In this document: positions 14,666-22,414 of the stretch, one piece after another
Layout of the letters: every line of letters begins with the position of its first letter
Numbering within the stretch: position 1 is the stretch's first letter
Notes under the pieces: generated by a model
The model's database searches: none
Seen by the model: only the letters and a program-made list of their open reading frames with translations
What the model was told of the DNA's origin: nothing
Translations under genes and position numbers: made by a program
Virus record (IMG/VR): IMGVR_UViG_3300031951_001045
Coordinates: 1-26,386 of that record
DNA: 26,386 nucleotides
Origin: a virus
Strand: one strand, 5' to 3'

Positions 14666-15110
14666 CGCGCTGTCTTACGGCCAAGAGATCATTGATCAAA
14701 TCTTGTGAAAAGTCATGCATTACATCAACTTGAATTGCGCCGTCATTTTTGCCGGTGACCTCGACTTTAGAATTTTCACGATATTCGTTGGGAAACCTCG
14801 CAGCCATGGAACGCGACCATAGCCCGGTGTTAAGCTTTGGCGCGCCTGGAGTCTCAATAACGTGCGTCTCAGCAAGTTGCTCCCAGTAAGCTAGCGCGTC
14901 TAATCGTGCTAAGTCCAAGGCTGCCCGAAAATCGTCGTGAACTTCTTCCCAGTTACGAAGATTAGATGGCGTAATGCCAAGCTCGGACGCGATTTGCCAA
15001 CGCGACTTGCCCAGTTTGCCAAGTGGCTCAATTTTTTCGCACAGCGCGGGATCGTACTTAGTAGGTCGACCTAAGAACTTCCCGTCCTTTGTCGGAGTTT
15101 TCGTAGTCAT
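14643..15110 (-). CDS. terS: Terminase small subunit
   Basis: The 155-aa protein has an N-terminal GRPTKYDPALCEKI segment and a helix-turn-helix (RWQIASELGITPSNLRNWEE, about 37-56). A helical region ARLDALAYWEQLAETHVIET and a C-terminal part with LWSRSMAARFPNEYRE follow. This is the usual layout of phage small terminase subunits that bind pac/cos DNA and hand it to the large subunit, whose gene overlaps this one by 23 bases. There is no clear Shine-Dalgarno before the ATG, which lies only a few bases after a possible promoter. Confidence 0.88.
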   Translation of the reverse strand: MTTKTPTKDGKFLGRPTKYDPALCEKIEPLGKLGKSRWQIASELGITPSNLRNWEEVHDDFRAALDLARLDALAYWEQLAETHVIETPGAPKLNTGLWSRSMAARFPNEYRENSKVEVTGKNDGAIQVDVMHDFSQDLINDLLAVRQRDAEAGDS

Positions 15111-15120
15111 AGTGAAAGCG

Positions 15121-15151
15121 AGTTATACCACAACACTTTATGGATTGTACA
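15121..15151 (-). promoter_or_regulatory. Possible late promoter before terminase genes
   Basis: On the minus strand TGTACA (15151-15146) is followed, after 18 bases, by an extended -10, TGG-TATAAC (15130-15122). The -35 matches 4 of 6 and the -10 matches 5 of 6 consensus bases. A start about 7 bases later would lie only some 5 bases before the terS ATG, giving an almost leaderless message; this fits the lack of a Shine-Dalgarno but weakens the call. Confidence 0.35.
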
Positions 15152-15174
15152 CAGGTTTGGATTTTGCGCCAGCA

Positions 15175-15356
15175 GGTAACAAAAAGCAGGTAACACTAGG
15201 CCCGAAAACTATTATAGAAAAACGTATATATATGTATATACATACATAAGTACACATATCTATATAAAAATATAAATTACTGTTACTTACTGTTACCTTG
15301 TTACCTTTCAATCCAGCAAAGGCTCTCATCGGTAACACCAAAGTAACAGGGTAACA
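15175..15356. repeat. Cluster of eight GGTAACA boxes around an AT-rich core; candidate origin
   Basis: The intergenic stretch 15111-15366 between terS and the helicase-primase holds no credible gene. It carries GGTAACA-type boxes at 15175-15181, 15189-15195, 15331-15337, 15343-15348 (AGTAACA) and 15350-15356. The inverted form TGTTACC/T occurs at 15281-15287, 15291-15297 and 15299-15305. Between the groups, about 15212-15278, lies an AT-rich alternating run (gtatatatatgtatatac...) that would melt easily. Short repeated boxes beside an AT-rich tract, next to the replicative helicase gene, is the arrangement of iteron-type origins. A regulator-binding site is the alternative. Confidence 0.55.
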
Positions 15357-15366
15357 CCTTTTTTCA

Positions 15367-17484
15367 TTAATAAGCAGTTTCATTGCCAATTTCTTGTGCC
15401 AAAGCAGCTTCGGTCTCTCTCACAAGACTCGTGTAATTTTCAATTAAGCAGCTTTCTCCATTTGCAGGTGTTACCACAATGATCGTGTAGCGAGTTGATT
15501 TTTTATTGTGTTTTATTAATCGAGAGGGCTCAATATCTCCGTAAGCAGCCAAAGCTTTACGTACGTACTGAGGCTTGGCGTTTTTATCATGGCCCCACTT
15601 TTCACATAAAACTTGTATTTGGTTTGCCGTCAGTGCGGCCTTGCCTCCACAGTTGTTAACAATCCATTGCACGAGCTCTTGAGCAAAGTCCTCGGTAGGT
15701 GTTTTGCTTAGCGCGATAGCCTGTTCTTTGTATTTAGTCTTTGGCGCCGCAGCCCATGGATCAAACTTCGTAATGTCTCGGTTCAAATACCAATCCAACA
15801 CAAAGCTAAAGCCTTTGCCTCCATCTTTTCTGGCCCAGGCCATCATATTGCTTACACGATCAAAGATGTCCTTCTGATCAAACGTTGGGCATTTGTAAAT
15901 CGCCTCGCGGCGGCTGGAGTTACCCATATGCGTGATGTAAGGCTTATTGGATGTAAATACGTAGTTTACGTAATTCTTGATTACGTATTGCGCGCCATAT
16001 TTGTTATTGATCATGATCTCTTTGCCAGTGATCAGGTTCTTTAGCTTTGCAGAGTGATCCTCTCTATCACTTGAGGGCTCATTGACAACCACAAAGACTT
16101 TGCCTTTTAAGACACCATTAAAGTTGCCAAAAAGATCATCAGGGCCTAACGTCGCTGCCGGCGCGCCTTCACCAATTCCCAACATCTCGGCGATAAATTC
16201 AGGAATTGCGGACTTGCCCATGCCTTGCATGTCGTGTATAAACTGTGGGCTTGTGTTATTTCTCCTGTACGGGAATTGTATGACATTGGCTACCCAATCA
16301 TGCCAGTACTCCGCAAAGTGTGGCTCGGCTTGAAAAAAGTATTGACAAAATTCCAAGTACGGGCTTGGGTCGCCAATTAAAGGCTCGTGAGCCCAATCGC
16401 GAAACAGGTTGTAACACCTGGTTGGTGTGATCTGCAATCCCTGAAACTCCGGGTACATACCAATGTGCTCAAGTTTACAGCATTTAGGCCATTTCTTATA
16501 TTCCTCGATCAGCGGGAGTTCCTTTGTTGAGACTCCTCCGTTTGCTTTAGGCGTCGCCTGTATGAAGAAATGCTGCGCTGAGTCTATCTTAGCCTTGCCC
16601 CAGTTAAGCACCAATCCGTCGCGCAGTCTAATCACATCGCCGTTAAACAACGCGTATTGAGTTTTAAATTCATACAGCTTTGTCTCTAACGTGTCAACGC
16701 CATTCATCACTGTTGTGGTTGCAGTTAAGATTTGCCCCAAGCTGCCACCGGTTAGTAAAAAATCATCAATGGCGTATTTACTTCCCTTGCCAGAGCCAAA
16801 CCTACCAACACGGCACAGTGTGACCTCAGCGCCTAAACCCCTCAGCGTCACGGCTAACTTAGTCTCCGCCATGCCCACCTGCTCATTAGGCTCACCGTTA
16901 TCCTCTTTGCCATCATAATCAAAGATGATGTACACCTTGCGCGACTTATCTGCAAAGCTGGTTTTACGCCTCCATAGTATTTGCATTAAGTCTGCGTGCA
17001 GATGCAGGCCTTGCTTATCCGACCAACTCGTAACACCGGCCAAGCCTAGGCATGCATAACTCAATGCGTTTGCCGTTACATGCTTGGTTAGCTGCCAGGC
17101 TTTAAACTCACCCTCCGTGATGATGATAGGTATATCAACATCACCGGCGACGTGCCTCCACCCCGTTGTGGGTGGAAAGTAAATGTGTGAGCCCGAGGCG
17201 CGAGGCTGTGAGTATTTCATTTTGCTTTTTGGCGCCAACAAACGGACGCGGTTAAAGCCTGTCGGTTTACCGTCCAAGTCAAAGTACGGCAACTGAATCG
17301 ACGCCTCACGCGTATGGCCTAAGAGCTTATGCGTTTCCTCGGGCGTTAAAAGTTTTAAGCCTAATGCTTGCTCATCCGTGTGTGTGAATTGTCTATCTTG
17401 CAGGAACTGATCATACAACTGTTGGTGTGTAATAACACTTGCGCCAAAGCCTGTTATTGGCGCAGTCTGTTGCTGCTGTGTCAA
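15367..17484 (-). CDS. Toprim / SF3 helicase-primase (D5/DUF5906-like)
   Basis: The 705-aa replication protein has a toprim-like N-terminal half: IIITEGEFKAW (about 118-128), with the invariant Glu, then VYIIFDYDGKED and YAIDDFLLTGG. The C-terminal half is a superfamily 3-type helicase as in D5/DUF5906 proteins: Walker A DMQGMGKS (about 417-424), Walker B-like VFVVVNEPS (about 460-468), an NYVFTSNKP sensor and SSRREAIYKC with a likely arginine finger. It should unwind DNA and possibly prime at the fork. The start is TTG at 17484, with AGGAG 8 bases upstream; the next ATG is about 85 residues in and would remove conserved-looking sequence. It lies on the strand opposite to the polymerase gene. 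Confidence 0.88.
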   Translation of the reverse strand: MTQQQQTAPITGFGASVITHQQLYDQFLQDRQFTHTDEQALGLKLLTPEETHKLLGHTREASIQLPYFDLDGKPTGFNRVRLLAPKSKMKYSQPRASGSHIYFPPTTGWRHVAGDVDIPIIITEGEFKAWQLTKHVTANALSYACLGLAGVTSWSDKQGLHLHADLMQILWRRKTSFADKSRKVYIIFDYDGKEDNGEPNEQVGMAETKLAVTLRGLGAEVTLCRVGRFGSGKGSKYAIDDFLLTGGSLGQILTATTTVMNGVDTLETKLYEFKTQYALFNGDVIRLRDGLVLNWGKAKIDSAQHFFIQATPKANGGVSTKELPLIEEYKKWPKCCKLEHIGMYPEFQGLQITPTRCYNLFRDWAHEPLIGDPSPYLEFCQYFFQAEPHFAEYWHDWVANVIQFPYRRNNTSPQFIHDMQGMGKSAIPEFIAEMLGIGEGAPAATLGPDDLFGNFNGVLKGKVFVVVNEPSSDREDHSAKLKNLITGKEIMINNKYGAQYVIKNYVNYVFTSNKPYITHMGNSSRREAIYKCPTFDQKDIFDRVSNMMAWARKDGGKGFSFVLDWYLNRDITKFDPWAAAPKTKYKEQAIALSKTPTEDFAQELVQWIVNNCGGKAALTANQIQVLCEKWGHDKNAKPQYVRKALAAYGDIEPSRLIKHNKKSTRYTIIVVTPANGESCLIENYTSLVRETEAALAQEIGNETAY

Positions 17485-17562: not shown

Positions 17563-17766
17563 TCACTGTTTTGTCTCTCCATCACCGTCTGAGAAAAAAA
17601 CTTTCGGCGTTAAGCAATGATCAACCAAGAATTCGTAATTCTTAATTGCAGTTTGCAATCTCAATGCAGTTAGCGCGATTTCAAAAGTCGGCGCCTGCAC
17701 GGTCAAAAGCTCCAACTCTTGCATGAGCTCTTTAGATATAACCTGCGTGTTTGCTTGGCCCGACAT
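17563..17766 (-). CDS. Small protein of unknown function (67 aa)
   Basis: The 67-aa protein starts MSGQANTQVISKELMQELEL and is mostly helical (ALTALRLQTAIKNYEFLVDH), ending in an acidic FFSDGDGETKQ. I chose the ATG at 17766 over one 27 bases upstream because the motif ATTGAAAGGAAT, found before several other genes here, lies 9 bases before it; the upstream ATG lies inside this motif region. It is the first gene leftward from the central control region and precedes the helicase-primase. Function unknown. Confidence 0.72.
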   Translation of the reverse strand: MSGQANTQVISKELMQELELLTVQAPTFEIALTALRLQTAIKNYEFLVDHCLTPKVFFSDGDGETKQ

Positions 17767-17899
17767 GTTGTAGGAATTCCTTTCAATGATCAAAAAATAA
17801 GGCTACATTGCCACACCTACATTGTACAATGGATTTATGTACATGCCAGGCTGGTTACTTTTTAACCACCTCTCAGAAGCCTATCTGGCCATGGTCCGA

Positions 17900-17931
17900 C
17901 GTGTTATATTTCACGATGTAAAAATAACACG
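17900..17931. repeat. 32-bp inverted-repeat element, copy 1
   Basis: CGTGTTAT (17900-17907) and ATAACACG (17924-17931) are perfect 8-bp inverted arms around a 16-base spacer that contains TTTCACGATGTAAA. It differs from copy 2 at 20194-20225 in one base of 32. The left half also forms an extended -10-like TGT-TATATT (17902-17910). Likely an operator or phage promoter element rather than a terminator, since no U-tract follows. Confidence 0.75.
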
Positions 17932-17955
17932 AGATGGCGGTCCAGATGGCAGATT

Positions 17956-17981
17956 CGTGCTATAATTCATCTTGTAACACG
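17956..17981 (+). promoter_or_regulatory. Extended -10 promoter within a degenerate repeat copy
   Basis: The 26 bases begin CGTGCTATAATTCA and end TGTAACACG, a shortened variant of the 32-bp element with the same CGTG...CACG ends. It includes TGC-TATAAT, a perfect extended -10, 57 bases before the start codon at 18023. No good -35 is visible at the normal spacing, as is usual for extended -10 promoters. Confidence 0.6.
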
Positions 17982-18022
17982 TTTCTCTCTGTATCTAACT
18001 GACTATTGAAAGGAATCACATC

Positions 18023-18310
18023 ATGCAAGCACTGGACATCCAACTTACTCACGTCGATCAACTCGGTATGCTATTGGCTCAGATTGCTGAGCTCCAAGAA
18101 CGCGCCGAGCAGATTAAGGATAACCTTAAAAACGCCGGCGAAGGTCGCCACGAAGGCAATCTGTATGACGCTACCGTTACGCTTAGCCAACGCAACGTCA
18201 TTGATTACAAGCAAATGGTTAAGGATTTGGCCATCGACGCTCAGACCGTCAAGCAATACACCACCACGACGGCCTCCATTACCTGCAAGGTTACTGCAAG
18301 AAAGGTTTAA
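18023..18310 (+). CDS. Unknown early protein (95 aa)
   Basis: This is the first gene of the plus-strand arm. The 95-aa protein has an N-terminal coiled coil (MLLAQIAELQERAEQIKDNL, about 15-34), then a beta-type part GNLYDATVTLSQRNVIDYK and ends ITCKVTARKV. An upstream in-frame extension in another reading frame is ruled out by the leader TATTGAAAGGAAT ending 6 bases before the ATG. It lies 57 bases after the extended -10. First-in-line placement suggests strong early expression. I do not recognise a named family. Confidence 0.8.
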   Translation: MQALDIQLTHVDQLGMLLAQIAELQERAEQIKDNLKNAGEGRHEGNLYDATVTLSQRNVIDYKQMVKDLAIDAQTVKQYTTTTASITCKVTARKV

Positions 18311-18314
18311 CATC

Positions 18315-18584
18315 ATGGCCAAGACTTTCAAATTCCCTATCCCCGAGGACCCGGTCGAGCGCGATCGGTTCTTCATGGACCGCGCGGCAATGATTCGCGC
18401 CAACTCAACGGCCAAGCACTTTGGCAAACTGATCATTGATCGCGAGCTTGCTGAAAGCACACTTAAATTGTTAGAATATCTTGAGCCCGACGATTTTGGC
18501 AGGCTTCAGGCCGATAAGCGCCATTACGAGGACTTTGAGCTCTTAATCGAGGATTGGAAAAAGCAATTGAAAAAAGGAGTCTAA
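18315..18584 (+). CDS. Unknown early protein (89 aa)
   Basis: The 89-aa protein starts MAKTFKFPIPEDPVERDRFF and is then largely helical and charged (DRELAESTLKLLEYLEPDDF, LLIEDWKKQLKKGV). The ATG follows the previous stop by 4 bases. Its 3' end supplies the GGAG that probably serves the next short gene. No domain recognised. Confidence 0.75.
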   Translation: MAKTFKFPIPEDPVERDRFFMDRAAMIRANSTAKHFGKLIIDRELAESTLKLLEYLEPDDFGRLQADKRHYEDFELLIEDWKKQLKKGV

Positions 18585-18590
18585 CTGATC

Positions 18591-18761
18591 GTGGCGTATT
18601 ACCGCAGAGAACAGCTCACGGTGCTCGACGCCCTTAGGCTTGAATGCCTTAAGGGCTTTGAGTCACCGGATGAGAAGAGAGAAGTATTGATTGAGATCGC
18701 GCAAGAATATGGCATGACCTACGAAGAGGTGCTACGCCTGTACCGCGAGTGTGCAAAATGA
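18591..18761 (+). CDS. Short GTG-started protein (56 aa), HTH-like
   Basis: The frame starts at a GTG 10 bases after GGAG and runs 56 codons: MAYYRREQLTVLDALRLECL, then a helical, charged remainder that ends LRLYRECAK. The part PDEKREVLIEIAQEYGMTYE resembles a helix-turn-helix scaffold with a Gly at the turn. It fills the gap between two good genes with no other frame available, and codon use looks like that of its neighbours. A small regulator is possible but only inferred. Confidence 0.6.
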   Translation: MAYYRREQLTVLDALRLECLKGFESPDEKREVLIEIAQEYGMTYEEVLRLYRECAK

Positions 18762-18782
18762 CTTTACAAGGAGCTTTTTATT

Positions 18783-19040
18783 ATGACTGAAACAACAACA
18801 ACTGAGCAAACCACAATCCCAGTAGGTGATATCAAGGTGCAGATTGGCAACGTGGATCTTGTTTTCACACCTGCCAAGGATATTTCAGGCTATGACACGG
18901 CCAAGCTTATGGTGATGTTTATTAATGGATTAATGGCCAAGCAGCCTATTAATCTCGGCGACTACATCGCTCAGCATGACCTGTCCAAGCACTTTACATT
19001 GCTACAGAATGAGCAGCCTGCTGAGAAGCAAAATGACTGA
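18783..19040 (+). CDS. Unknown early protein (85 aa)
   Basis: The 85-aa protein has a Thr-rich start (MTETTTTEQTT), a beta-type segment DIKVQIGNVDLVFTPA and a helical stretch YDTAKLMVMFINGLMAK. AAGGAG lies about 9 bases before the ATG. The stop overlaps the next start by 8 bases. No family recognised. Confidence 0.75.
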   Translation: MTETTTTEQTTIPVGDIKVQIGNVDLVFTPAKDISGYDTAKLMVMFINGLMAKQPINLGDYIAQHDLSKHFTLLQNEQPAEKQND

Positions 19041-19224
19041 CCTACGCAAAGCAGCAGAGATGGCGTTGGAGGCTTTAGAAGAACAATGGGAAGAACATGA
19101 GGCCATAGATGCACTACGCCAAGCACTAGCGCAGACAGAGAAACCACCAGTCAAGTCTTACTGCGGGGGTAAACCTAACTATTGCACCCCTGAAGTCACC
19201 CCTCTTGAGGAGAAGAACGCATGA
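19033..19224 (+). CDS. Unknown protein (63 aa), ALEAL-type
   Basis: The start is taken at 19033, giving MTDLRKAAEMALEALEEQWE; upstream extension would run inside the previous gene without a ribosome site. The helical pattern AAEMALEALE...AIDALRQALAQ is seen in many small phage proteins of unknown role. A C-terminal part has two Cys (SYCGGKPNYC). Its stop overlaps the next ATG as ATGA. Confidence 0.7.
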   Translation: MTDLRKAAEMALEALEEQWEEHEAIDALRQALAQTEKPPVKSYCGGKPNYCTPEVTPLEEKNA

Positions 19225-19553
19225 AACCAACCATAGTGTATTGCCACGAGCTTGCATACATCGTGCGCCATGCATTGCAACAAGAACGAGGCACCTCCGT
19301 TGCAGTGCAATATGTAGGACCTATTGAGTTTGATATGGCTGGTGATAGCAAGCTGGCCTCAACGACTAAAAAAATCTCAATAAGAGATGCAAACGACACG
19401 GAGTACGTCATTACAATAGAAGAGCGAGCCAATGCACAAAAACGCGCACTACAACAACAAACACAAGAGCACGACATTAAAATGCTGCGCCATGAATTGC
19501 TAAACTGCGAAACAACATTGCAACAGGAAAGGACTTTACGTGCCAACGCGTGA
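19221..19553 (+). CDS. Unknown protein (110 aa)
   Basis: The 110-aa protein is coupled by ATGA to the gene before it. Its first half looks mixed alpha/beta (IVYCHELAYIVRHALQ, VAVQYVGPIEFDM), and its second half is a Gln/Glu-rich coiled coil (RANAQKRALQQQTQEHDIKM). AAGGAG-like GAGGAGAAG lies before the ATG. No catalytic motif seen; function unknown. Confidence 0.75.
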   Translation: MKPTIVYCHELAYIVRHALQQERGTSVAVQYVGPIEFDMAGDSKLASTTKKISIRDANDTEYVITIEERANAQKRALQQQTQEHDIKMLRHELLNCETTLQQERTLRANA

Positions 19554-19644
19554 CGCAATTTTTTATGCATGGCCTTTTGCCTCTGATGAGTGGAGAGAAA
19601 AGCTTTACATTTGGTTTTTACAACAACGGCTGCCATTAAAATGA
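19540..19644 (+). CDS. Very short GTG-started protein (34 aa)
   Basis: A GTG at 19540 follows GGAAAGGA by 6 bases and opens 34 codons: MPTRDAIFYAWPFASDEWRE, then KLYIWFLQQRLPLK. It overlaps the previous gene by 14 bases and joins the next one as ATGA. The arrangement matches the rest of the operon, but the short length leaves doubt. Trp/Phe/Tyr-rich; function unknown. Confidence 0.5.
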   Translation: MPTRDAIFYAWPFASDEWREKLYIWFLQQRLPLK

Positions 19645-19868
19645 AACGCTACTTTTGGGCTTTGCAAATTAAAGGCACGGAGCGTTTTGTTGCGCGCATG
19701 CCCGTGTATCATTGGGAATCCTTTACCACCGCGTTGTTTAAGACGCGCAAACATGCCGAGCAATGGCGCGACACGCAAGATAATGGTTATTGGCGTCTAC
19801 GAGGCGTGCCGGTAAAAGTAAAGCTACAAATTCAAACTGCGTTTTCCTCGACAAGGAGTCCTGAATAA
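19641..19868 (+). CDS. Unknown protein (75 aa)
   Basis: The 75-aa protein starts MKRYFWALQIKGTERFVARM and is basic and rich in aromatic residues. The true ATG at 19641 overlaps the previous stop (ATGA). It ends in TAATG, coupling it to the next gene. No domain recognised. Confidence 0.72.
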   Translation: MKRYFWALQIKGTERFVARMPVYHWESFTTALFKTRKHAEQWRDTQDNGYWRLRGVPVKVKLQIQTAFSSTRSPE

Positions 19869-19996
19869 TGAGAAATACCTATTGGATTGACTCAGGCCTA
19901 GCGGCCGAGGCGGCACGTGACTTAATCTGGTTTGTTGTGCTTGTCTTTGTAGGCGTGGCAGTGGTTATCTGGCGTGACATAAGGAAAAATAAATGA
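19868..19996 (+). CDS. Small single-pass membrane protein (42 aa)
   Basis: The 42 codons give a short polar start (MRNTYWIDSGLAAEAARD), one hydrophobic helix LIWFVVLVFVGVAVVIW (19-35) and a basic tail RDIRKNK, which predicts an N-out/C-in or Lys-anchored inner-membrane helix. AAGGAG lies 10 bases before the ATG. Overlaps on both sides (TAATG and ATGA) support it. It could be a host-takeover or lysis-related peptide, but nothing here decides that. Confidence 0.68.
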   Translation: MRNTYWIDSGLAAEAARDLIWFVVLVFVGVAVVIWRDIRKNK

Positions 19997-20184
19997 AAAC
20001 CATCTTGGCAATGGCCCTTTCGGGGGTTGTTTTCTTTCAAATGGGGACACATCTTGGCGAGCTCAAAGGTCAGCAAGCGGCCATCGACCCCAGAAATCCA
20101 TCAGAACAGCTTGAGATGGCCTGCGTTGGCCTATGGGTAGGGGAACAAAATAACAAGTATTGGAAGGCGCAGCAAGGCTTATAG
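19993..20184 (+). CDS. Small protein with N-terminal hydrophobic segment (63 aa)
   Basis: The 63-aa protein starts MKTILAMALSGVVFFQMGTH, which is a short signal peptide or membrane anchor, followed by a soluble part with a single Cys (QLEMACVGLWVGEQNNKYW). AAGGA lies 8 bases before the ATG. It is coupled to the preceding membrane peptide by ATGA; the two may act together at the envelope. It is the last gene before the second control region. Confidence 0.68.
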   Translation: MKTILAMALSGVVFFQMGTHLGELKGQQAAIDPRNPSEQLEMACVGLWVGEQNNKYWKAQQGL

Positions 20185-20193
20185 ACCCGTTCT

Positions 20194-20225
20194 CGTGCTA
20201 TATTTCACGATGTAAAAATAACACG
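20194..20225. repeat. 32-bp inverted-repeat element, copy 2
   Basis: It differs from copy 1 (17900-17931) only at one base (CGTGC instead of CGTGT), which breaks one arm pair. It holds TGC-TATATT (20196-20204), an extended -10-like sequence, and the shared TTTCACGATGTAAA core. It stands upstream of the DUF932 gene as copy 1 stands upstream of the first early gene. Confidence 0.75.
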
Positions 20226-20347
20226 AAAATATGAAAAAAGTCCCATTTTGCCTACACAAAGTCCCGAGAACCATTAAAATTGCAATTGTAGTACAGCACG
20301 TTTCTTGTTACTAACTAACTTTTTTGAATATTGAAAGGAATTACATC
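20226..20347 (+). promoter_or_regulatory. Second control region, before the DUF932 gene
   Basis: These bases hold no gene. TAAAAT (20275-20280) is followed by TTGTA and by CACGTTTCT (20297-20305), the same box that follows the promoter at 17961, then TATTGAAAGGAAT (20329-20341) and TACATC before the ATG. The order of elements copies the central control region, with about 20 extra bases. A promoter here is likely, with TAAAAT or the TATATT of the repeat as -10. Confidence 0.6.
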
Positions 20348-21289
20348 ATGGCACACATGATCGCACAAACAGCAGATGGTCGCAACGCAATGGCCTACGT
20401 TGGCCAAACCCCTTGGCATGGCCTAGGTCAGCAACTGACCGAGAATTCTCCGATTGAAGTCTGGGCTCAAGAATCTGGCCTTGATTTCAAACTGGCCATG
20501 GCCAATGTGATGTTCAAACCTGAATCCGGCGCGTTGAACGCTTTCAATGGCAAGCGCGTCATCTACCGCCAAGATACCAACTTGCCTCTCGGCCTGGTAT
20601 CTAATCGGTACAAGATTGTGCAGCCTATCGAGGTGCTGGAGTTTTTCCGCGACATGGTAGGCACCATTGCGCACTTGGAAACAGCCGGCGTCCTGCGCGA
20701 CGGTGCTCACTATTGGGCCCTTGCCAAAATGGAAGGCGAGTTCTCCGTGGCCGGCGATCAGGTTAACCAATATCTACTCCTGGCATCCTCGGCCGATGGA
20801 TCTTTGGCCACTCAGGCAAGGTTGACCTCGGTCCGCGTGGTATGCAATAACACTCTGCAGCTGGCTCAAGGCTCCGGCGACGTGGTTCAGGTTCGTCACT
20901 CCTCGGTCTTCAACGCCGATGAAGTCAAATCCAAGCTTGGTGAGTACAACCAAGTCTTTAAGAATTTTGAGCTCACGGCCAAAACGCTGGCCAAGATCAA
21001 AGTCTCCAGCGAGCAGGCAACTAAGATCTTTGCCAAGATTCTCGGTGGCGACGAGCTCAAGCCCAGCCGTGCTGCAACTCGAGCACTGGAGCTTTTCCAA
21101 GGCGCAGGCATCGGCGCCGACATGGAGTCCTCCAAAGGTACGGCCTGGGGTGCTCTTAACGCCGTGACGCAGCTCATGGATTGGGAAACCGCCCGCACCA
21201 CCGATGCTCGGCTCCGCAATGCTTGGTTTGGCTCCGGTGTCAATGTCAAGCAAGAAGCCGCCAACGAGCTCCTGGCTTTGGCAGCCTAA
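20348..21289 (+). CDS. DUF932 (phage/plasmid-like TIGR03299) protein (313 aa)
   Basis: The protein has the hallmarks of the DUF932 family: an N-terminal AYVGQTPWHGLGQQL, a middle VSNRYKIVQPIEVLEFFRDM, SVRVVCNNTLQLAQ, and a C-terminal QGAGIGADMESSKGTAWGAL with a following NAVTQLMDWE and DARLRNAWFGSG. These proteins are common on phages and plasmids and their molecular role is unknown. I start at 20348, where the leader TATTGAAAGGAAT precedes the ATG by 6 bases; a TTG 24 bases upstream lies before the ribosome site. GC content is higher than in nearby genes, and it has its own promoter region and a terminator-like hairpin, so it behaves as a separate, probably highly expressed unit. Confidence 0.88.
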   Translation: MAHMIAQTADGRNAMAYVGQTPWHGLGQQLTENSPIEVWAQESGLDFKLAMANVMFKPESGALNAFNGKRVIYRQDTNLPLGLVSNRYKIVQPIEVLEFFRDMVGTIAHLETAGVLRDGAHYWALAKMEGEFSVAGDQVNQYLLLASSADGSLATQARLTSVRVVCNNTLQLAQGSGDVVQVRHSSVFNADEVKSKLGEYNQVFKNFELTAKTLAKIKVSSEQATKIFAKILGGDELKPSRAATRALELFQGAGIGADMESSKGTAWGALNAVTQLMDWETARTTDARLRNAWFGSGVNVKQEAANELLALAA

Positions 21290-21915: not shown

Positions 21916-22019
21916 CACGCATTCAATTTGCATGGAGTAAATATTTCCCCTGGTACTTTATTGGCGACCTAGCCATTGTAGGTTTGATCTTTGCTCTCAT
22001 TGCCTGGGCCGTTAAATGA
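21912..22019 (+). CDS. Tiny single-pass membrane protein (35 aa)
   Basis: The frame starts at an ATGA overlap with the previous stop and ends in another with the next gene. Its product is MTRIQFAWSKYFPWYFIGDL followed by AIVGLIFALIAWAVK. There is a basic/aromatic start and one hydrophobic helix (about 16-33). The double coupling supports it being translated. Function unknown. Confidence 0.6.
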   Translation: MTRIQFAWSKYFPWYFIGDLAIVGLIFALIAWAVK

Positions 22020-22414
22020 TGTATGCCCAAGTAAAAGAGTTCAGACAAAAAATGGCTTTGCCAATAGGTGATAAGCCGCAGTTACTTTCACCAGAGCAAA
22101 CCAGCTACTTTGCACGCTTCATCATGGAGGAACTCAGCGAGTACCTCCGTGGCGTTGAGGAAGGTAGCATAGTGGACGCGTCCGACGCCCTTGCCGATTT
22201 GGTTTACGTTACTCTTGGCATGGCCCACGCCATGGGGTTGCCTTTCAACCAACTGTTTGACATTGTACACGAGGCCAATATGCAAAAAGAACCTGCTAAT
22301 GATCGAGTACGGTCTTTACGCGGTCAACAATACGATGTTGTAAAGCCTGTTGGTTGGCAAAACCCCGAGCCCGAGATTGAACGGGTACTAAGAGCGCATG
22401 GAGCAATGCTATGA
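22016..22414 (+). CDS. MazG/PRA-PH-like nucleotide pyrophosphohydrolase (132 aa)
   Basis: The protein fits the all-alpha NTP pyrophosphohydrolase superfamily (MazG, dUTPase-like, PRA-PH). FARFIMEELSEYLRGVEEGS (32-51) carries the first Glu pair (E39/E42), and DASDALADLVYVTLGMAHAM (54-73) the second acidic group (D57/D61); together they bind Mg2+ for cleavage of nucleoside triphosphates to monophosphates and PPi. Phage versions clean or tune nucleotide pools, or lower ppGpp or dUTP; the substrate here is unknown. Two ATGs stand in tandem (22016, 22019); the first overlaps the upstream stop. It is coupled by ATGA to the next gene. Confidence 0.82.
   Translation: MMYAQVKEFRQKMALPIGDKPQLLSPEQTSYFARFIMEELSEYLRGVEEGSIVDASDALADLVYVTLGMAHAMGLPFNQLFDIVHEANMQKEPANDRVRSLRGQQYDVVKPVGWQNPEPEIERVLRAHGAML

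What the first reader, a model, noticed from the sequence alone, without database searches (positions are those of the whole stretch)
17900..20225. A 32-bp inverted-repeat element duplicated in front of two transcription units
Copies at 17900-17931 and 20194-20225 are identical at 31 of 32 positions although they lie 2.3 kb apart in non-coding DNA. Copy 1 has perfect 8-bp arms CGTGTTAT/ATAACACG. Each includes an extended -10-like TGY-TATATT and a TTTCACGATGTAAA core. A shorter variant at 17956-17981 keeps the CGTG...CACG ends and has a perfect TGC-TATAAT. Conservation at this level suggests an operator for a phage- or host-coded regulator, or a phage-specific promoter class.
Basis: partly seen in the sequence, partly recalled or inferred. 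Interest (0 to 1): 0.7.

Follow-up and report, generated by a model that had tools for sequence, protein, structure and literature searches.

The report
Conserved phage operator before two promoters
The repeated 32-base element is this freshwater phage's version of a 15-base two-fold symmetric protein-binding site that distant relatives carry at a fixed distance in front of most of their promoters, so it is very probably the switch site of an unidentified, probably phage-encoded gene regulator.

Summary
Confirmed: the 32-mer is at 17900-17931 and 20194-20225 (31/32 identical), in non-coding DNA, with no other copy in the window; chance gives none. A sister phage (44.8 kb, about 98% identical proteins) has both copies, 32/32 identical to each other. 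The conserved part is the core TTTCACGATGTAAAA, a lineage variant of the palindrome TTTCAC-N3-GTGAAA. More distant phages (DUF932 protein 65-73% identical) carry 7-13 copies, 49 of 53 intergenic, never with another spacer (0-9). All 25 of their extended -10 promoters (TGnTATAAT..GTAG) have the palindrome upstream, 22 with its centre at -40/-41, where a -35 box would be; shuffled decoys never line up. A matrix trained only on those phages ranks the two window 32-mers first and second. In a third lineage the sites precede the same two homologous genes. The element is therefore very probably an operator for a dimeric regulator. Fixed spacing and promoters without a -35 favour an activator (like Mu Mor); repression is not excluded. 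The outer 8-bp arms and the embedded TATATT are private to this lineage. The regulator is unidentified: a MarR-like 94-aa protein co-occurs with the sites in relatives but was not found in the window or its sister.

The parts
17900..17931 (+). 32-bp element, copy 1, in the divergent intergenic region
   Evidence: 31/32 identical to copy 2; only two matches in the window; conserved in sister phage
17909..17923 (.). operator core TTTCACGATGTAAAA (one mismatch to TTTCAC-N3-GTGAAA), centre about -57 to the 18023 promoter
   Evidence: joint top score (18.4 bits) of a matrix trained only on other phages; best of 40 shuffles 15.6
20194..20225 (+). 32-bp element, copy 2, upstream of the DUF932 gene
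20203..20217 (.). operator core copy 2, centre about -77 to the DUF932 promoter; same place (-77/-78) in lineages L041, L045, L048
   Evidence: joint top score; spacing N=54 here, 55 in L045 and L048; L041
17956..17981 (+). 26-bp variant: extended -10 promoter TGCTATAAT (17958-17966) of the 18023 unit, no -35 box
   Evidence: identical in sister; best -35 candidate has 4 of 6 mismatches; not a top matrix hit
20275..20293 (+). putative DUF932 promoter: -10 TAAAAT (20275-20280) then GTAGTA
   Evidence: GTAG start motif shared with DUF932 upstream regions of many relatives
18023..18310 (+). first gene of the rightward unit (95 aa, unknown function); homologue follows the operator in G002 (61% identity)
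20348..21289 (+). DUF932 gene (313 aa), second operator-linked unit
   Evidence: PF06067, E 2.8e-54; homologues with upstream operators
17821..17826 (-). possible -10 (TACAAT) of the leftward promoter toward 17563 and the primase/helicase gene
   Evidence: consensus scan only

Best explanation
Each 32-mer holds an operator, a 15-bp two-fold symmetric site (TTTCAC-N3-GTGAAA family), bound by a dimeric, most likely phage-encoded transcription regulator that controls the first rightward unit and the DUF932/replication unit together. In related phages the same site sits where the -35 box would be (centre -41) in front of extended -10 promoters that lack a -35 box, so the regulator most likely works as an activator that replaces the -35 contact for host sigma-70-type RNA polymerase; in the window lineage it sits further upstream (-57 and -77). 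Shown by sequence: existence, symmetry, conservation, intergenic placement, fixed spacing. Inferred: protein binding, phage origin of the protein, activation rather than repression, and transcription start positions.
For: Two copies only, chance 0. Sister phage keeps both. Relatives: 7-13 palindromes per record at up to 1 mismatch in the richest records, reversed-pattern control 0 in all 14 records. 49 of 53 non-redundant sites intergenic against 24% expected, p 2e-26. 25 of 25 extended -10 promoters carry the site, 22 at spacer 17/18; shuffled half-site decoys put at most 2 at any one spacing against 18 for the real one, and only an N3 spacer occurs (16 exact sites, 0 for N0-N2 and N4-N9). 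Whole-IMG/VR scan shows the 17-18 spacing in this phage family. Matrix from other phages ranks the window's and sister's two sites and G002's two sites first and second. Same two homologous genes are preceded by the site in G002. Five bacterial bins that hold relatives' capsid genes show the palindrome only at about control frequency, so no host regulon was seen.
Against: No binding or transcription data. In the window the sites are at -57 and -77, not -41, so the activator argument is carried over from relatives. The window core has one imperfect half (GTAAAA). The candidate MarR-like regulator of the relatives was not found in the window or sister. In G002 the second site scores below the best shuffle (14.9 against 16.8). 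A repressor with a preferred site position would give similar patterns.
Confidence: 0.7

Rival explanations
1. The sites are repressor operators: the regulator shuts early and DUF932 promoters off (or loops between copies) by blocking polymerase at the -35 region.
For: MarR-like winged-helix candidate belongs to a fold best known for repressors; arrays of sites 20 bp apart upstream of a leftward promoter in relatives; site pairs at N=17 and N=44.
Against: 22 of 25 promoters keep the spacing to within one base and lack a -35 box, which a simple blocker does not require; window sites at -57/-77 lie outside the polymerase core contacts.
Confidence: 0.25
2. The 32-mer is itself a promoter (TGYTATATT extended -10) with the operator over its start site, giving tandem promoters before each unit.
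For: Extended -10-like TGCTATATT in copy 2 and both sister copies, TGTTATATT in copy 1; similar layout to the 26-bp promoter at 17956.
Against: No -10 box at this position of the operators in L041, L045, L048 or the 40% GC clade; TATATT is one off consensus.
Confidence: 0.12
3. Replication-origin iterons or partition sites bound by an initiator, terminase or ParB-like protein rather than a transcription regulator.
For: Tandem array with 20-bp spacing next to terminase genes in G005 and relatives; half-site resembles that of chromosomal parS.
Against: Fixed spacing to promoters; no ParB_N match in 8 phage records and no HTH_ParB match above cut-off; parS has no 3-bp spacer and no N0 site occurs; window has only two separate sites.
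Confidence: 0.08
4. A recent chance duplication, an RNA hairpin, or a remnant of coding sequence with no regulatory role.
For: Copies nearly identical; copy 1 RNA folds (z -2.3); a 59-aa ORF runs over copy 1 in the sister.
Against: Cores at the same places in other lineages; copy 2 does not fold (z -0.5); the sister's ORF has an in-frame stop in the window after four codons.
Confidence: 0.03

Closest known systems
Phage Mu middle promoter Pm and its activator Mor (PMC4390567)
   Same: Dimer-type inverted-repeat element replacing the -35 box (Mor site 16 bp, centred -43.5), recognisable -10, host sigma-70 polymerase
   Different: Site sequence and length unrelated, 3-bp spacer between 6-bp arms, several copies per genome, extended -10; no Mor-like protein was looked for by profile; window sites lie at -57/-77
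P2 Ogr / P4 delta late promoters (from general knowledge, not checked here)
   Same: Symmetric activator site upstream of -35-less phage promoters, centred near -55, close to the -57 of the window
   Different: Consensus TGT-N12-ACA; zinc-finger activator; late genes rather than early and replication units
MarR-family operators (fold of the candidate regulator)
   Same: Short palindromes bound by winged-helix dimers; candidate co-occurs with sites in relatives
   Different: Candidate not found in window or sister; recognition helix differs between G002 and G005 although the site is the same
Chromosomal parS (ParB site), Rex operator (letters from general knowledge)
   Same: Shared letters TTTCAC/GTGAAA
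   Different: parS has no central spacer; the Rex box has the half-sites in the opposite order; no ParB_N match and no HTH_ParB match above cut-off in these phages

Membership tests
Activator site of the -41 class that replaces the -35 box (Mor-like) | Inverted repeat centred near -41 to -43 with a -10 and no -35 | tested here: met
   Met in the 40% GC clade: 22 of 25 promoters; in 12 of them the best -35 candidate has 2-4 of 6 mismatches, mean 2.9 against 3.5 at random
Activator site of the -41 class that replaces the -35 box (Mor-like) | Same position in the window's own promoters | tested here: not met
   Centres at -57 and -77 (spacers 34 and 54)
Activator site of the -41 class that replaces the -35 box (Mor-like) | Promoter activity depends on the bound protein | not testable with these tools
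   needs reporter assay
Mor/C protein family | Phage encodes a Mor/C homologue | not tested
   Only selected proteins were scanned with Pfam; none matched, but not every gene of the sister was scanned
MarR-like regulator as the binder | Regulator gene present in every operator-bearing phage | tested here: not met
   Present in 13 of 17 operator-bearing loci against 2 of 63 others, tallied by hand; not found in window, sister, L041, L048, though all are incomplete records
parS/ParB | parS spacing and an encoded ParB | tested here: not met

The most novel reading that the evidence does not exclude
A family-wide promoter class of uncultured freshwater (probably betaproteobacterial) phages, in which an undescribed phage regulator bound to TTTCAC-N3-GTGAAA takes the place of the -35 contact at nearly all promoters of the early half of the genome, with the window lineage having moved the site upstream by about one and a half and three and a half helical turns.
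Probability: 0.45. Interest if true: 0.65.

Novelty: new member of a known kind. Interest (0 to 1): 0.5.

Why it matters
It gives a sequence-defined regulon, with operator, promoter spacing and target units, for an uncultured phage group, found by comparison alone. It makes the control of early transcription in these phages directly testable and offers a bait (the operator) for finding the unknown regulator.

Tried and rejected
The first pattern I searched was mistyped and found nothing. Nucleotide search of phage records found no relative. Exact 23-mer scan of IMG/VR found only the sister phage. Rfam: no hit. RNA hairpin: copy 2 does not fold. A second spacing peak at N=29-31 in the IMG/VR scan was set aside after reading the sequences: the N=29 set shares one conserved stretch with a TTGATA box, and the N=31 set has a canonical TTGACA -35, so these look like unrelated phages. 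ParB and parS and Rex (half-site order) rejected. Host-coded regulator: no excess of sites in five bacterial bins, weak because the true host is unknown. Isolated relatives by capsid protein (Caulobacter phage GB2A, MW202545, DSL-LC04) lack the site; HTVC023P has two matches, not checked further. The structure of the 18023-family protein was uninformative (pLDDT 54). A literature search for the operator letters returned mainly Rex and parS papers, no phage operator among those listed. Helical phasing of the upstream positions (34, 44, 54) was seen but not claimed: spacers 51/52 break it.

Full report
Observation. The two 32-mers are at the stated places, 31/32 identical, and are the only matches in the window at up to 3 mismatches; shuffled sequence gives none. 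The window is a 26,386-base virus record. A sister phage (IMGVR_UViG_3300013132_003474, 44,755 bases, DUF932 protein 98% identical) has both copies, identical to each other and 2,968 bp apart, plus the 26-bp variant. The sister has C at position 5 in both copies, so the perfect 8-bp arms of copy 1 are not conserved. As RNA, copy 1 folds weakly and copy 2 does not, so the element is better read as DNA.

What is conserved. Reading 230 bases upstream of DUF932 genes in about 60 viral loci showed that L041, L045 and L048 carry TTTCACGATATGAnAAA about 71-72 bases before the DUF932 -10 box, the same distance as in the window. A pattern scan then showed that a 40% GC clade of relatives (L066, L069, L074, L075, L083 and others; DUF932 65-68% identical) carries many copies of a perfect or near-perfect palindrome, TTTCAC-N3-GTGAAA. 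The window core TTTCACGATGTAAAA is this palindrome with one mismatch. Whole records confirm 7-13 copies in the richest of them, with none for the reversed control pattern. These phages share gene order and capsid genes with the window phage: capsid protein 85-94% identical between G000/G001, G002 and G005.

Placement. Of 53 non-redundant sites, 49 are intergenic although only 24% of the sequence is (p 2e-26). In G002 the two sites lie in front of homologues of the same two genes as in the window, the 18023 gene (61% identity) and DUF932. In G005 sites lie in the divergent region, before DUF932, and as a tandem array 20 bp apart beside the leftward terminase unit.

Spacing. Every one of 25 distinct TGnTATAAT promoters with a GTAG-type start in the 40% GC clade has the site upstream; 22 have it with 17 or 18 bases between site and TG, so its centre is at -40/-41 if the start is 12 bases after the first base of the -10 box. 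Three have spacer 34/35. Shuffled half-sites reach at most 2 promoters at one spacing; the real one reaches 18. Exact half-sites occur only with a 3-base spacer (16 cases, none for 0-2 or 4-9). The -35 region in these promoters has no good match. A scan of all IMG/VR with a free spacer of 5-35 gives a 17-18 peak made of these phages; the other peak, 29-31, comes from sets that share a different conserved context and carry TTGATA or TTGACA boxes.

Window promoters. The 18023 promoter TGCTATAAT (17958) has spacer 34 and the DUF932 promoter TAAAAT (20275) has spacer 54, so centres are about -57 and -77. G002 has 34 leftward, 44 rightward, 55 at DUF932; L048 has 55. A position matrix trained only on the other clade ranks the two window cores first and second (18.4 bits, best of 40 shuffles 15.6), likewise in the sister (17.9, best shuffle 17.0); in G002 the two sites also rank first and second (22.3 and 14.9, best shuffle 16.8). 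This is the strongest evidence that the 32-mer is the same kind of site.

Mechanism. A symmetric site of fixed spacing that replaces the -35 contact is how phage Mu Pm works: a Mor dimer binds inverted repeats in a 16-bp element centred at -43.5 and replaces the -35 element, with sigma-70 polymerase (PMC4390567). By analogy I take activation as most likely, about 55%, repression about 25%. For the window this rests on relatives, since its own sites are further upstream.

Regulator. A 94-aa protein (A2) with a confident winged-helix model (pLDDT 88) and MarR-family structural matches (best E 4e-4) is encoded in 13 of 17 operator-bearing loci and 2 of 63 others (hand tally, relatedness not corrected). 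It was not found in the window or sister, whose records are incomplete but cover the early region, so it cannot be the answer there without a missing copy. ParB-type proteins were not found above cut-off. Host origin is disfavoured by background site counts in five bacterial bins holding relatives' capsid genes, all five titled as betaproteobacteria, but the true host is unknown.

Limits. No experiment, inferred starts, heuristic gene calls, and related phages that are not independent.

Noticed in passing
window 15110-15367: AT-rich gap between the terminase small subunit and primase genes with ATATATAC tract and repeated GGTAACA; G002 has a similar gap with GGTTACA repeats. Possible origin or terminator.
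   Followed up: no
L099 6726-6937 (G005 46726-46937) and L066 3463-3675: Tandem array of palindromes spaced 20 bp (some abutting) upstream of a leftward CTATGTATAATG promoter beside the terminase genes (spacer 43).
   Followed up: partly
window 17563-17766 (-): 67-aa leftward ORF opposite the operator whose leader TTGATCATTGAAAGGA resembles those of the rightward genes; G002 has the same leader before a 20-aa ORF.
   Followed up: partly
L010-L065 upstream of DUF932: Operator-negative DUF932 phages share other elements there (AAAGTATACA, TTGCAA repeats), perhaps other regulator specificities.
   Followed up: no
L111, L112, L114, L115, L118, L122, L129-L131, L136, L138, L140: Apparently unrelated phage set with a conserved ATTTCACC-GGTGAAAT palindrome followed by TTGATA and TGATATAAT at constant spacing.
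   Followed up: partly
window 22016-22414: MazG/PRA-PH-like nucleotide pyrophosphohydrolase (PF01503, E 3.6e-16).
   Followed up: no
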